Shown one piece after another: positions 3,521 through 51,005 of a stretch of 64,000 nucleotides of DNA. Numbering within the stretch: position 1 is the stretch's first letter; each line of letters starts with the position of its first letter. The stretch is taken from NCBI RefSeq assembly GCF_002028545.1, contig NZ_MWPQ01000001.1:1-64000 (forward strand), in the 5' to 3' direction. A program made the translations under genes and the position numbers. Below the pieces are notes generated by a model that had not been told where the DNA came from, did not search any database, and saw only the letters and a list, made by a program, of their open reading frames with translations. This stretch comes from Nitrobacter vulgaris. GTDB taxonomy: Bacteria > Pseudomonadota > Alphaproteobacteria > Rhizobiales > Xanthobacteraceae.

Positions 3521-4264
3521 TTATCGCAATAGCCACCGGAAGGCGCGGCGTAATTCGTCCGTGCCATTGCAATCGTACCATCGGCCATGGGCCAGAATAA
3601 TCCGCTCCGGATTCCAGTCGATCATAGATTCCACGGCAAACCTCAACCGCGCCTTGTTGCGATAGGATGCACGCATGTCGCGCGGCATCGATCCGTTCGG
3701 GTCCTGCGCGCAGCCGAGCCGCGTCAGCCAGCGCATGAAAACTGAGTGCAGCTTGTGAGGCTCAAAATTCTCGATCAGATCGGTCACCACCAGCGTCCGG
3801 CTCCGGCGATGAAAGAAAACGACTTCCGTCATGTAGCTGCCCTCGACCGGAAGCGTCGCCACGCTGCTGTCCCAGGGGTAACCCCGATCCCGGTCAAGCG
3901 CTTGGCAATCGAAATCGATACGGCTGCCTGCCTGCTCGCGGATGCGCGGCGCGAGATAGACCTCGGTATCAGTAAAGGCGTTGTGCCAGTCCGGAATCCA
4001 CCAGTAGTGGATCCGGTTGGGTCCGATGACCCAGCGCGGCCGGCCGAGGCCTTCGACACTCCGCTTGAGTTCGGGCGTCAGCCGCGTCGGCGAATGGACA
4101 AGCAAATCGCTCCCGATGCGGATGACTGTCATGCGGGTCGAGAACGGCATTTTCAGCAAAGGCGGGCCGAAGAGGATCGTCGGACCATCGACGATCCAGA
4201 CGTCGTCGGCGACGCGCTTAAGCGTGTCGAGCGGCGGATAGGTCGCGGGCGTATCTCGTTCCAT
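3521..4264 (-). CDS. DUF4336 family protein (metallo-hydrolase-like fold)
   Basis: A 247-residue protein. The start VWIVDGPTI...PFSTRMTVIRI, the strand LLVHSPTRL followed by GRPRWVIGPNRIHYWWI, and the late PERIILAHGRW fit the DUF4336 family, which is distantly related to the metallo-beta-lactamase fold. The usual HxHxDH zinc motif is absent: the equivalent place reads GPNRIHYWW. The function is not known. It is convergent with the small membrane protein to its left and divergent from the pirin gene to its right, with one palindromic repeat between the latter two. Confidence 0.75.
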   Translation of the reverse strand: MERDTPATYPPLDTLKRVADDVWIVDGPTILFGPPLLKMPFSTRMTVIRIGSDLLVHSPTRLTPELKRSVEGLGRPRWVIGPNRIHYWWIPDWHNAFTDTEVYLAPRIREQAGSRIDFDCQALDRDRGYPWDSSVATLPVEGSYMTEVVFFHRRSRTLVVTDLIENFEPHKLHSVFMRWLTRLGCAQDPNGSMPRDMRASYRNKARLRFAVESMIDWNPERIILAHGRWYDCNGTDELRRAFRWLLR

Positions 4265-46688: not shown

Positions 46689-47483
46689 ATGGCAGGCTAT
46701 GGTTCGGTCATGGAGAAAATGGGCATGGATCGAGAGGACCAAACGCATTTCGGCTTCAGGGACGTCCCCCTGGTGGACAAGCAAACGCTGGTGAACGACG
46801 TCTTCCACAGCGTGGCGCAGCGTTACGACCTGATGAACGATCTGATGTCCGGCGGACTGCACCGCGTCTGGAAGGATGTGTTGATCACGGCGCTGAACCC
46901 GCCGCGCAGCGATGCGCCATTTTCGCTGCTCGATGTCGCAGGCGGCACCGGGGACATTGCCTTTCGGGCCGCGAAAGCCGCGGGCCACGGATTTCAGACC
47001 ACCGTCTGCGACATCAATCCGGATATGCTCGCGGTCGGCCGCGAGCGCGCCATCAAGACACATCTCGATCATCAGGTGTCGTTCGTCGAAGGTAACGCCG
47101 AGGCATTGGCGTTCGCGGATCGCAGTTTTGACGCCTATACCATCGCTTTCGGCATCCGCAACGTGCCGCGCATCGACGCCGCGCTGCGCGAAGCGTTTCG
47201 GGTGCTAAAGCCAGGCGGCCGGCTTCTCTGTCTCGAATTCTCGACGGTCGATGTGCCGGGACTCGACAAAATCTACGATCTGTTCTCTTTCAAGGTGATC
47301 CCGCCGCTCGGCCGCACCGTCACAGGCGACGCCGACTCCTATCAGTATCTGGTCGAATCAATCCGCAATTTTCCGAAGCCGAATGCCTTTGCCGACATGA
47401 TCCGTGACGCCGGCTTCGCCCGCGTGACCTGGCAGGCGCTCTCCGGCGGCATCGTCGCACTACACTCGGGCTGGCGTTTGTGA
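46689..47483 (+). CDS. ubiE: Ubiquinone/menaquinone C-methyltransferase UbiE
   Basis: A 264-residue class I methyltransferase. It has [27 protein letters not shown] motif [18 protein letters not shown], and [11 protein letters not shown], then [13 protein letters not shown] and [20 protein letters not shown], all UbiE hallmarks. It methylates the quinone ring in ubiquinone synthesis. The N-terminal start is uncertain: ATG 46689, 46710 or 46725 are all in frame. It overlaps ubiB by 4 bases (GTGA). Confidence 0.95.
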
Positions 47484-49048
47484 TCTCCGCATTATCCCAC
47501 GTCGCGCGGCTGGCACGCGCCGCGTTCGTGTTCGCGCGCGAAGGCGTGTTCGGCGTCGTCGATCCCTCGCTGGTGCCGCCGCCCGGACAGCTCGCGCTGC
47601 GCATGGCCCGCCTCGTCGAGCGCCGCGGCGCGAAATCCGGCTCGCGGCTGACGCGCGCGCTGACGCGGCTCGGGCCGGCCTATCTCAAGCTTGGACAATT
47701 CCTGGCCACGCGCCCCGATGTCATCGGCATCGCCATGGCTCGCGATCTGGAAAGCCTGCAGGACCGCTTGCCGCCGTTTTCACAAGCGGAAGCTGAAGCG
47801 GTGGTCGCGGCGTCTTTGGAAAGACCCGTGACACAGGTTTTCGCAAGTTTCGGACCGCCGGTGGCGGCAGCCTCGATCGCACAGGTCCATCGCGGCGAGG
47901 TCGAGAAGAACGGCGTCCGAAAGCAGGTTGCGGTCAAGGTGTTAAGGCCCAACGTCGGCGCACGCTTTCGACGCGACCTCTCGGACTTTTTTTTCGTCGC
48001 CAACAAGGCCGAAGCGCATTCGGCCGAAGCGCGGCGGCTGCGCCTCATCGAAATCATCAACACCATGTCGCGATCGGTAGCGATGGAAATGGACCTGCGG
48101 CTGGAGGCGGCCGCACTGTCGGAGATGGCGGAGAATACCCGCGACGATCGGGACTTTCGCGTTCCTACTGTGGACTGGGATCGCACCACTCACAACGTGC
48201 TGACGATGGAGTGGATCGACGGCATCGCGCTGAACGATCATGCGCGTCTTGCGCAAGCGAAAGCCGATCTGCCCGAACTCGGCCGCAAGGTGATCCAGAG
48301 TTTTCTGCGCCATGCGCTGCGCGACGGCTTCTTTCACGCCGACATGCATCCGGGCAACCTGTTTCTCGACGATTCGGGCCGGCTGGTCGCGGTCGACTTC
48401 GGCATCATGGGACGGCTGGGATTGAAAGAGCGGCGTTTCCTTGCCGAAATTCTGCTCGGCTTTATCACGCGTGACTACCGCCGCGTCGCCGAGGTGCACT
48501 TCGAGGCCGGATACGTGCCGGGCCATCACTCGGTGGAGAATTTCGCGCAAGCGATCCGCGCCATCGGCGAGCCGATCCACAATCGCACCGCCGAGGAAAT
48601 CTCGATGGCCAAGCTGCTGACGCTGCTGCTTGAGGTCACCGGCCTGTTCGACATGCAGACGCGCCCCGAACTGATCCTGTTGCAGAAGACCATGGTGGTG
48701 GTCGAAGGAGTGGCGCGCAGCTTCGACCCTAAATTGGATATCTGGACGGTGGCCGATCCGGTCGTCCGCGAATGGATTACGGAGAATCTCGGCCCGATCG
48801 GACGGATGCAGGGCGCGATTGCCGGCGCCGGCGAGCTTGGCCGCCTGCTCGGTGGGTTGCCGGCGATCGCCTCGCGAACGGTCTCTCTCATCGAGCAGTT
48901 CGAGGCGATGGCGCGCGAAGGGCTGACATTGGGGCCTGACACCATTGCGGAGATCAAGCGGGCTGAAGAACGCAGTCAGCGCTGGAATATTCTGGCGCTC
49001 TGGGTCATCGCCGCGGCGCTTATGGGTCTGCTCTGGACCGCACATTGA
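47480..49048 (+). CDS. ubiB: Ubiquinone biosynthesis kinase-like protein UbiB
   Basis: A 522-residue ADCK/UbiB atypical kinase. It has the KxGQ motif ([13 protein letters not shown]), an Ala-rich loop ([13 protein letters not shown]), [23 protein letters not shown] and [12 protein letters not shown]. The C-terminal end has a membrane segment ([17 protein letters not shown]). It supports ubiquinone synthesis as an ATPase. Start is GTG 47480, overlapping ubiE. The coaBC gene follows 65 bases later. Confidence 0.95.
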
Positions 49049-49077
49049 TTGAGTTGATTGCAGTGACACCAATCGAC

Positions 49078-49101
49078 TGATATCAATGCTATCATACGTA
49101 T
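49078..49101. promoter_or_regulatory. Candidate operator for the ribbon-helix-helix domain of CoaBC
   Basis: TGATATCA (49078-49085), one base, TGCTATCA (49087-49094): an imperfect inverted/direct repeat. ATACGTAT (49094-49101) adds a palindrome. TGCTATCA equals, as I recall it, the half-site bound by Neisseria FitA. The stretch is 20-35 bases before the coaBC start codon. Binding is inference. Confidence 0.45.
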
Positions 49102-49113
49102 CGCGGGACTATT

Positions 49114-50550
49114 ATGGCCAGCCTGACCATCCGCAAGCTCGACGACGCCATCAAGGCCGAGCTGCGGATGCGGGCCGCCCGCAACGGCCGTTCGGTCGAG
49201 GACGAGGTCCGCGTTATCCTGCGCGAGGCTGCAACTCCCGCTGCGCCGACGGTCACCACCGCCAGCAACGCATCCCGCAACGCAGCAATCCCACGCTGGC
49301 ATAATTTACGACACAATAGCAATGGTTTACTTAGAATAACACTGATCATTGGCGGCGGGATCGCCGCTTATAAGGCGCTCGATCTGATCCGACGATTGAA
49401 GGAGCGCGGTTTTATTGTGCGGTGCGTCATGACAAATGCTGCGCAGCAATTCGTCACGCCCCTGAGCGCCGGGGCGCTTTCAGATGAGCGTTGCTATACC
49501 GACTTATTCGATCAAGGCAGCGAATTCGACGCGGGCCATATCCGGCTCGCGCGGGACTGTGACCTCATCGTCGTAGCGCCTGCAACAGCCGACCTGATGG
49601 CAAAGATGGCACACGGCCACGCTGACGATCTCGCGAGCGCCATTTTACTCGCCGCGGACAAGCCGATTTTGCTGGCACCGGCGATGAACCCGCTGATGTG
49701 GAACAACCCGGCGACACGTCGCAACGTGGCGCAGCTCGCGCGCGATAGCGTCGCCATGGTCGGCCCCGAGGCCGGCGAGATGGCGGAAGCGGGTGAGGCC
49801 GGCGTCGGCCGCATGGCCGAGCCTGTGACGATCGCGACCGCCGCCGAGCGGATTCTCAGGCCTCCGCAGGCGCAACCATTGAAGGGCCGCCGAGTCCTGA
49901 TCACCGCCGGACCGACCCTCGAGCCGATCGATCCCGTGCGCTATATCGCCAACCGCTCCTCGGGCAAGCAAGGCTTTGCCATTGCAGCGGCGGCGCAGGC
50001 AGCCGGAGCCGAGGTGGCGCTGATTTCCGGTCCGGTCGACCTCGATGACCCCGCCGGCGTCACCGTGGAGCATGTCGAATCCGCGCGGGAGATGCTGGCG
50101 GCTGTGGAAGCCGCGCTGCCCACCGACATCGCGATTTTCTCGGCTGCGGTTGCCGACTGGCGCGTCGCGCACGAAGGCGCGCAGAAATTGAAGAAGACCG
50201 CGGCCGGGATTCCGCCGCTGCAACTGACAGAGAACCCGGACATCCTCGCAACCATCTCAAACCTGCGCGACAAACGCCCGCCCCTCGTGATCGGCTTCGC
50301 CGCCGAAACCGAACATCTCATCGAGAATGCCAAGGCAAAATTCGCACGCAAAGGCTGCGACTGGATCGTCGCCAACGATGTCTCCCCCGGAACCGGCGTG
50401 ATGGGCGGCGACCGAAACACCGTGCATCTGTTGACGCGCGGCGAAGGCGGCGAGATCAAGACCGAGTCCTTCGCCGTCATGACCAAGGAAGAGGTGGCCG
50501 CAATGCTGATCGAACGCATTGTCTCAACCATGACGGATTCGTCGAAGTGA
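49114..50550 (+). CDS. coaBC: Bifunctional CoaBC with N-terminal FitA-like ribbon-helix-helix domain
   Basis: A 478-residue protein. Residues 1-40 are a ribbon-helix-helix of the FitA antitoxin type ([10 protein letters not shown], then [19 protein letters not shown]). Residues 41-75 are a linker encoded by AT-rich DNA. Residues 76-240 are CoaC (phosphopantothenoylcysteine decarboxylase), with [16 protein letters not shown], His142 in GHIRLA and PAMN at 189-192. Residues 250-478 are CoaB (phosphopantothenate-cysteine ligase), with NRSSGKQG and KLKK. The usual Cys in the CoaC clamp (ACG-x2-G-x-GRM) is missing; the region reads [11 protein letters not shown]. No in-frame start codon exists between the RHH and CoaC parts, so the fusion must be translated. 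It overlaps dut by 4 bases. Confidence 0.93.
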
Positions 50551-51005
50551 GCGGCCCGATCAAGGTTGACGTCGTGCAACTGCCTCATGCCGAGGGTCTT
50601 CCGCTGCCTTGCTACCAAAGCAGCCAGGCGGCCGGCCTTGATCTCGTCGCCGCAATTCCCGAACAGGCGCCGCTGGTTCTCGTCGCCGGACAGCATGCGA
50701 TGGTTCCGACCGGGCTGATCATCGCATTGCCCGACGGATTCGAGGCGCAGGTGCGGCCGCGCTCCGGCCTCGCTGTCAAGCACGGCGTTACCGTGCTGAA
50801 TTCGCCCGGCACCGTGGACGCCGATTATCGGGGCGAGATCAACGTTCTCCTCGTTAACCTCGGAACGGCATCATTCACCATCCGCCGCGGCGAGCGCATC
50901 GCGCAGATGGTCGTGGCGCCGGTGACGCGGATTGAACTCGCGCGCGCAGTGTCGTTGTCGGTAACGACCCGCGGCAGCGGTGGATTTGGTTCGACCGGAC
51001 GCTAG
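50547..51005 (+). CDS. dut: Deoxyuridine 5'-triphosphate nucleotidohydrolase
   Basis: A 152-residue trimeric dUTPase. Motif 1 is AGLDLVAAI, motif 2 [12 protein letters not shown], motif 3 [15 protein letters not shown], motif 4 [10 protein letters not shown] and motif 5 [10 protein letters not shown]. It hydrolyses dUTP to dUMP, preventing uracil in DNA. It starts with GTG overlapping the coaBC stop (GTGA), so both are coupled. coaBC-dut is the normal order in many proteobacteria. Confidence 0.96.

What the first reader, a model, noticed from the sequence alone, without database searches (positions are those of the whole stretch)
49114..49350. FitA-type ribbon-helix-helix domain fused to the CoA biosynthesis enzyme CoaBC
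Seen: the coaBC frame opens with about 40 residues that match the FitA antitoxin N-terminus (MASxxIRxL... RAAxxGRSxExExRxIL), then a 35-residue linker, then CoaC. There is no in-frame ATG, GTG or TTG between the RHH and CoaC parts, so this is one protein. The linker is encoded by DNA of about 30% GC (49302-49349), unlike its surroundings, which may mark an old junction. Known: FitA is the DNA-binding antitoxin of FitAB. Inference: CoaBC may bind DNA and repress its own operon (coaBC-dut, perhaps ubiE-ubiB).
Basis: partly seen in the sequence, partly recalled or inferred. Interest (0 to 1): 0.8.

Follow-up and report, generated by a model that had tools for sequence, protein, structure and literature searches.

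The report
CoA enzyme carrying antitoxin-derived DNA-binding domain
In many relatives of rhizobia the essential coenzyme A enzyme CoaBC begins with a DNA-binding domain of the kind found in toxin-antitoxin systems, and its own promoter carries matching palindromes, so the enzyme probably switches off its own gene.

Summary
One 478-aa frame (49114-50550) carries a FitA-type ribbon-helix-helix (RHH, residues 2-40), a disordered linker and a full CoaBC. The fusion is conserved, and the RHH is under stronger purifying selection (dN/dS 0.12) than the enzyme (0.205). The promoter carries two 17-bp palindromes (TGATNGCA-N-TGCNATCA type; 49055-49071, 49078-49094). Among distinct loci examined, 92 of 94 fused coaBC genes have such a palindrome (score >=10 of 12 within 300 nt) against 3 of 107 RHH-less ones; in 14 loci held out to the end, 6 of 6 fused and 0 of 8 RHH-less. 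In the window's genome 2 of 6 near-matches are this pair, and no PF01850 PIN toxin gene is found. Related genomes suggest the source: ubiB-fitA-fitB-coaBC, an antitoxin/PIN-toxin pair directly before coaBC behind a similar palindrome. One relative keeps an apparent 34-codon fitB scar; in one genus two fused proteins carry different antitoxin-like N-termini. Best explanation: domestication of a toxin-antitoxin repressor, making CoaBC its own promoter repressor (works like PutA). DNA binding, repression and any CoA-linked switch are inferred. No paper on it was found in the open-licence library searched.

The parts
49055..49071 (.). Operator 1 (distal), TGATTGCAGTGACACCA, degenerate right half
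   Evidence: 1 mismatch to TGNTNGCANTGCNANCA; one of 6 such sites in the 3.9-Mb genome; 23 bp from operator 2, a spacing common in relatives
49078..49094 (.). Operator 2 (proximal), TGATATCAATGCTATCA
   Evidence: 1 mismatch to the pattern; position -36 recurs among fused relatives
49114..49233 (+). FitA-like RHH domain, CoaBC residues 1-40
   Evidence: PF22513 2-40, E 2e-17; AlphaFold2 helices 11-24 and 28-40; R7, L9, A22, S27, E29, R33 invariant in 93 of 93 distinct fused proteins, dN/dS 0.12
49234..49332 (+). Linker, residues 41-73, predicted disordered, fast-evolving
   Evidence: pLDDT < 50 at 42-70; dN/dS about 0.58 near saturation; no in-frame start codon
49333..49827 (+). CoaC (phosphopantothenoylcysteine decarboxylase) domain, residues 74-238
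   Evidence: PF02441 74-238, TIGR00521 74-469; Foldseek best match 6tgv, M. smegmatis CoaBC
49879..50433 (+). CoaB (phosphopantothenate-cysteine ligase) domain, residues 256-440
   Evidence: PF04127 256-440; E. coli CoaB structures 1u7z and others
50547..51005 (+). dut, overlaps the coaBC stop by 4 nt (GTGA): same transcription unit expected
47480..49048 (+). ubiB, upstream neighbour; its stop lies just before the operators

Best explanation
The N-terminal 40 residues are the DNA-binding half of a FitA-type antitoxin, probably captured from a fitA-fitB toxin-antitoxin module that sat between ubiB and coaBC; the toxin and the antitoxin's toxin-binding tail are gone. RHH dimers of the oligomeric CoaBC bind the palindromes in the coaBC promoter and block transcription of coaBC-dut, so the amount of CoaBC limits its own synthesis. 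In FitAB the toxin helps to hold two RHH dimers on the operator; here the CoaBC oligomer would do that. SHOWN by sequence: the fusion, its conservation, selection on the RHH, the palindromes and their tracking of the RHH, toxin-antitoxin pairs directly before coaBC in relatives, an apparent toxin scar, and a second, different antitoxin-like N-terminus in one genus. INFERRED: binding, repression, and the direction from TA module to fusion. SPECULATIVE: that substrates or CoA change DNA binding.
For: Fusion: RHH match in 236 of 296 genomes of the family (stand-alone FitA included); nearly all rows of the capped list lie in CoaBC-sized frames. Selection: dN/dS over 479 pairs from 32 loci: RHH 0.12, CoaBC 0.205, linker 0.58. 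Operators: with the pattern fixed, 67 of 69 fused loci (2 duplicates among them) score >=10 of 12 and 0 of 41 RHH-less ones above 8. Of 27 distinct fused loci first seen later, 25 score >=10 within 150 nt, 26 within 300 nt. All distinct loci: fused 92 of 94, fitAB-coaBC 13 of 13 (10 of them exactly 10), RHH-less 3 of 107; dinucleotide shuffles of the fused upstreams 34 of 1880. Held-out loci: 6 of 6 fused, 0 of 8 RHH-less. Symmetry: positions 5 and 13 complementary in 0.68 against 0.43 shuffled, 0 of 1000 as high. Rarity: 6 sites in the own genome, 2 of them this pair; in 12 relatives 24 sites, 15 of them at coaBC. Origin: ubiB-fitA-fitB-coaBC in L131 and L141, PIN confirmed; 13 such loci by HMM; apparent fitB scar in L147; L123's fused N-terminus aligns to the FitA of L200 over 68 residues, past the RHH, E 4e-16 in a set of 28 sequences. 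No PF01850 match in the own genome.
Against: No binding or expression data. The pattern was derived from the fused loci, so those are no independent test. Many loci are close relatives; on well-supported branches only 8 independent pairs exist (motif same way in 5.1, opposite in 0.3, median p 0.06). L003 (Nitrobacter, the best-matching named locus) and L127 are fused but score 8 and 9. Three RHH-less loci reach 10. Of three fitA-type loci only L200 reaches 10. Ten of the 13 fitAB loci score exactly 10, a score that shuffles reach or pass in 4 of 260. Two relatives (G028, G108) have no site by the stricter pattern, only degenerate ones scoring 10. 9 of 24 sites in 12 relatives lie away from coaBC. 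Operator 1 of the window is degenerate. The promoter scan of the window found no forward promoter. Only 5 of 23 other fitA loci carry the motif. Trees are unrooted, so gain and loss cannot be told apart. The model shows no beta-strand at residues 3-7, where a dimer would be needed.
Confidence: 0.82

Rival explanations
1. The RHH is a passive relic of an old fusion, kept only because it does no harm.
For: The linker is highly variable and disordered; 10 RHH-less coaBC rows lie within the own-family clade that is mostly fused, so the domain is dispensable or was gained late in some lineages.
Against: RHH dN/dS 0.12 is below that of the enzyme; six residues invariant in 93 of 93; palindromes in 92 of 94 fused loci, and scores below 10 in 104 of 107 RHH-less ones.
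Confidence: 0.04
2. The RHH still works as an antitoxin domain against a PIN toxin elsewhere in the cell, and DNA binding is secondary.
For: It is of the FitA family, and fitA-fitB pairs occur directly before coaBC in relatives.
Against: By reading, the window's linker lacks the FitA C-terminal segment seen in the stand-alone proteins; no PF01850 match in the own genome, while 10 of 14 control genomes have one (other PIN families not searched).
Confidence: 0.03
3. RHH-CoaBC is a wider regulator that also controls other genes.
For: A few extra near-matches exist: one at the start of a gene read as valS in the own genome (L115), and 9 of 24 sites in 12 relatives lie away from coaBC.
Against: The own genome has fewer near-matches (6) than its reversed-pattern control (15); 12 relatives have 0-4 sites each; the extra G065 site lies between convergent genes. 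Conservation of the valS site was not tested.
Confidence: 0.1
4. The palindromes belong to another regulator or are plain promoter elements, and the RHH binds something else.
For: The left half overlaps a -35-like TTGATT followed at 17 bp by TA...T in 13 of 44 loci.
Against: 104 of 107 RHH-less coaBC upstreams score below 10; a similar palindrome stands before 13 of 13 fitAB-coaBC modules, where fitA comes first; the only other PF22513 hit of the own genome is below the cut-off (22.4 bits) and looks unrelated by reading.
Confidence: 0.05

Closest known systems
Trifunctional PutA (RHH + proline dehydrogenase + P5C dehydrogenase)
   Same: An N-terminal RHH joined to a bifunctional metabolic flavoenzyme that represses its own genes (PMC5293562, abstract and passages seen)
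   Different: PutA is catabolic and switches to the membrane with proline; here the enzyme is CoaBC and the RHH is FitA-like, with relatives in toxin-antitoxin operons. The switch signal, if any, is unknown
FitAB toxin-antitoxin system of Neisseria gonorrhoeae
   Same: RHH of the same Pfam family, only PDB sequence match; inverted repeats with eight-nucleotide halves (PMC6118392 passage) and four FitA-FitB heterodimers on 36 bp (PMC3920265 passage). The half-site TGATAGCA/TGCTATCA is recalled from Mattison 2006, which is not held
   Different: No toxin gene, no toxin-binding tail; the RHH is part of a biosynthetic enzyme
CoaBC of Mycobacterium (dodecamer, 6tgv)
   Same: The CoaC-CoaB enzyme is fully present; the mycobacterial enzyme is a dodecamer inhibited by CoA thioesters (PMC7794376, passages seen)
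   Different: Mycobacterial CoaBC has no RHH: its N-terminal CoaC begins at residue 1

Membership tests
CoaBC (TIGR00521) | Flavoprotein and DFP domains, score above the curated cut-off | tested here: met
CoaBC (TIGR00521) | Decarboxylase and CTP-dependent ligase activity | not testable with these tools
   no assay possible
FitA antitoxin (PF22513) | FitA-like RHH at the N-terminus | tested here: met
   63 bits against a cut-off of 27; 2bsq/2h1o matches
FitA antitoxin (PF22513) | C-terminal toxin-binding segment as in the stand-alone FitA sequences printed | tested here: not met
   absent from the window's linker, by reading only
FitA antitoxin (PF22513) | Cognate PIN-domain toxin gene | tested here: not met
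   no PF01850 match in the own genome; other PIN families not searched
RHH autorepressor enzyme of the PutA type (works like) | RHH at the N-terminus of a metabolic enzyme, kept by selection | tested here: met
RHH autorepressor enzyme of the PutA type (works like) | Operator-like palindromes in its own promoter that track the RHH | tested here: met
RHH autorepressor enzyme of the PutA type (works like) | Measured operator binding and repression | not testable with these tools
   needs a gel shift and a reporter assay
PutA protein family (membership) | Proline dehydrogenase and P5C dehydrogenase domains | tested here: not met
   none in the Pfam and NCBIfam scans at E <= 0.001

The most novel reading that the evidence does not exclude
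Antitoxins of toxin-antitoxin modules lodged in front of coaBC were turned several times, perhaps twice within one genus, into the DNA-binding domain of CoaBC. The CoaBC oligomer is then a metabolite-gated autorepressor whose grip on DNA reports CoA or substrate occupancy, giving these bacteria a transcriptional CoA sensor with no separate regulator.
Probability: 0.4. Interest if true: 0.9.

Novelty: new variant of a known kind. Interest (0 to 1): 0.78.

Why it matters
I found no description of a DNA-binding domain inside CoaBC in the library searched. If true, an enzyme of central metabolism is its own repressor in Bradyrhizobium, Rhodopseudomonas, Afipia, Nitrobacter and relatives (named loci). 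The extant series (toxin-antitoxin pair before coaBC, apparent toxin scar, fused antitoxin, domain absent) would be a visible route by which a toxin-antitoxin system becomes a housekeeping regulator. It gives a direct target: a short promoter with two palindromes and a 40-residue domain.

Tried and rejected
Tried and rejected: (1) L072, a Rhodospirillaceae MAG listed as matching residues 3-475, shows no fused RHH; the alignment ran into the upstream DNA. (2) A regulon beyond coaBC: the valS-like site (L115) and the G065 site were judged chance and not pursued. (3) FitB remnants in fused linkers: looked for by eye only, none recognised. (4) The GC-poor patch as a fusion junction: rejected. (5) Split proteins: in L030/L109 the RHH frame stops after 53 residues, by a frameshift at a C-run of the linker; one MAG seen twice, counted as fused in the three-state tree and. 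(6) L103 and L168 first seemed to lack operators; in G043 (L103) a pair lies about 250-290 nt upstream and in L168 a site lies at about -140 to -155. (7) A forward sigma-70 promoter in the window: none found. (8) A test of one origin for all fused genes (AU test) was not run.

Rows dropped: 129 of 135 genomes searched by handle had a CoaBC match (62 of 64, 67 of 71). I fetched 100 of those 129 regions; 11 more were already held; 13 more were fetched at the end (with G108 added) and are counted only; 5 were not fetched (G004, G020, G048, G300, G311; four of them gave only partial or split matches, G300 one at 38% identity). The genomes were chosen for spread over genera and for RHH hits, not at random. 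In one search, 8 of 233 loci had no CoaBC (other RHH loci). The tree used 175 of 216 distinct rows and that used 78, both thinned by hand. The L147 scar alignment used an almost free gap extension that I chose, so its score is no test.

Full report
OBSERVATION. The frame 49114-50550 is a single 478-residue protein: FitA-like RHH at 2-40, Flavoprotein (CoaC) at 74-238, DFP (CoaB) at 256-440, and the CoaBC model at 74-469. Residues 1-40 match only gonococcal FitA (2bsq, 2h1o) among PDB sequences, E about 0.004. AlphaFold2 with 25 aligned fused proteins gives two helices (11-24, 28-40), a disordered stretch (42-70) and the enzyme; Foldseek puts the rest on M. smegmatis CoaBC. The window's linker has no in-frame start codon. 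The GC-poor patch 49302-49349 is real (29.2%) but not shared by most fused relatives.

CONSERVATION. The RHH has a match in 236 of 296 genomes of the same family (stand-alone FitA proteins included); nearly all rows of its capped list lie in CoaBC-sized frames. In the wider order the fusion also appears in family f24 (L122-L128, among them a 1.6-Mb genome) and f16 (L129); families are coded, not named. In 385 genomes of the class no RHH match lies in a frame of 400 aa or more apart from the own genome and G024 of its family; that search used E <= 1e-4 and would miss an RHH as divergent as that of L128 (E 9.8e-4). Among 93 distinct fused proteins R7, L9, A22, S27, E29 and R33 never vary and T5 is kept in 91. 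That residue 7 contacts bases in FitA is recalled. Over 479 pairs from 32 loci dN/dS is 0.12 for the RHH, 0.205 for the enzyme and about 0.58, near saturation, for the linker. Three of 70 RHH-bearing loci start with GTG or TTG at the same place.

OPERATORS. Reading 100 nt upstream of 70 RHH-bearing coaBC loci (a few duplicates) showed recurrent 17-bp palindromes of the form TGATNGCA-N-TGCNATCA. With a 12-position pattern fixed, 67 of 69 such loci scored at least 10 and 0 of 41 RHH-less ones scored above 8; single-base shuffles reached 10 in 5 of 1380. Because the pattern came from those loci, later ones matter more. Of 27 distinct fused loci fetched afterwards (L149 left out as a copy of L037), 25 score 10 or more within 150 nt and 26 within 300 nt (one search lists only L003 and L127 below 10). 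Over all distinct loci with a 300-nt window: fused 92 of 94, fitAB-coaBC 13 of 13 (10 of them exactly 10), fitA-type 1 of 3, RHH-less 3 of 107; dinucleotide shuffles of the fused upstreams 34 of 1880, of the fitAB ones 4 of 260. Fourteen loci fetched at the very end gave fused 6 of 6 and RHH-less 0 of 8 (not checked for copies of named loci). The palindrome covaries: positions 5 and 13 are complementary in 68% against 43% when shuffled, 0 of 1000 as high. Two sites lie 22 or 23 bp apart in 33 of 68 fused rows; 26 rows have a single site and 9 other spacings. In the window the sites are 49055-49071 and 49078-49094, between the ubiB stop (49048) and the coaBC start. The own genome holds 6 near-matches, 2 of them this pair, against 15 for the reversed pattern. 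With a stricter pattern 12 relatives hold 24 sites, 0-4 each, 15 of them in front of coaBC; G028 and G108 have none, but both have degenerate sites scoring 10. In 13 of 44 loci with TTGATT a TA...T hexamer follows at 17 bp, against at most 5 at any other spacing, which suggests that the operator covers the -35 region; for tandem sites this is confounded by the constant spacing, and the consensus scan found no forward promoter in the window.

PHYLOGENETIC TEST. On a tree of 175 CoaBC cores, RHH-bearing rows (fused or TA) have the motif in 78 of 85 and RHH-less rows in 3 of 90 (Fisher p 6e-37, which ignores kinship). Ten RHH-less rows lie within the own-family clade that is mostly fused (61 of 72 rows, support 92); 9 of the 10 score below 10, L157 scores 10. 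The kinship-aware test is weaker: 8 independent pairs on supported branches, motif going the same way in 5.1 and the other way in 0.3 on average, median p 0.06.

ORIGIN. In 13 loci of families f35, f16, f24 and one genus of the own family, a FitA with a C-terminal tail and a FitB-type PIN gene lie just upstream of coaBC on the same strand, found by HMMs built here, with 682-756 nt from the FitA start to the CoaC core. Two were read in full: in L131 and L141 a gene read as ubiB precedes, and fitB and coaBC overlap by 4 nt; in L131 dut follows. PIN is confirmed by Pfam for both. L200 and L224 have a FitA-like gene and another PIN gene before coaBC. L147, of the own family, has a FitA followed by a 34-codon stretch that resembles the start and the end of FitB; the start (10 of 12 residues identical to L131) is clear, the end is short, and Pfam does not recognise it. 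Its FitA has H at position 7 and its upstream scores only 8, as in a decaying module. In genus g108 of family f24 closely related CoaBC cores carry different N-termini: L122, L124, L125 and L126 are 63-90% identical over 86 residues, whereas L123 matches the FitA of L200 best, 49% over 68 residues, past the RHH (E 4e-16 in a set of 28 sequences). So two fusions, or one domain swap, are likely in one genus. A quick IQ-TREE of 78 rows separates the own-family fused rows from those of f24 and f16 by a branch with 99 support. The trees are unrooted, so the direction from TA to fusion is inferred from the scar and from L123's retained segment.

MECHANISM. FitA RHH dimers bind inverted repeats with eight-nucleotide halves (PMC6118392 passage), and the toxin does not touch DNA but stabilises the complex of four heterodimers on 36 bp (PMC3920265 passages). 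CoaBC of Mycobacterium is a dodecamer with CoaC trimers at four vertices and CoaB dimers at six edges, inhibited by CoA thioesters (PMC7794376 passages). If the window's enzyme has the same assembly (not tested), it carries 12 RHHs on flexible linkers and could replace the toxin as the tie. The simplest reading is negative autoregulation of coaBC-dut. A ligand-dependent switch is plausible by analogy with PutA (PMC5293562 abstract and passages), but nothing here tests it.

LITERATURE. Searches for CoaBC with ribbon-helix-helix and CoaBC with antitoxin and fusion returned no paper; phosphopantothenoylcysteine decarboxylase with transcriptional regulation and autoregulation returned one, on tropones (listing only); a combined search on RHH and CoA biosynthesis showed 15 of 120 papers, none on this by title. 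The library holds open-licence papers only, so this is no proof of absence.

VERDICT. It is a new variant of a known kind: an enzyme that is probably its own repressor, built from an antitoxin domain.

Noticed in passing
L103 and L168, upstream of coaBC: An insert that looks REP-like by eye lies between the palindromes and the coaBC start, moving the operators to about -250 to -290 and about -140 to -155.
   Followed up: partly
L030 about 4125-4165 (same record as L109): An Afipia MAG has a frameshift at a C-run of the linker, so that RHH and CoaC are in different frames; sequencing error or real split not decided.
   Followed up: partly
L200 (G363) 915-1785 and L224 (G630) 1026-1810: FitA-like genes with another kind of PIN gene also stand directly before coaBC, as if this slot attracts toxin-antitoxin modules.
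   Followed up: partly
L262 1620 (G065 C1:1399620): A perfect operator palindrome between two convergent genes about 4.3 kb before coaBC, with no promoter role evident.
   Followed up: partly
L115, at the start of a gene read as valS (own genome C9:60776-60792): A one-mismatch operator overlaps the start region; conservation in relatives not checked.
   Followed up: no
49302-49349: A 29% GC patch in a 62% GC window, spanning the end of the linker and the start of CoaC; cause unknown.
   Followed up: partly
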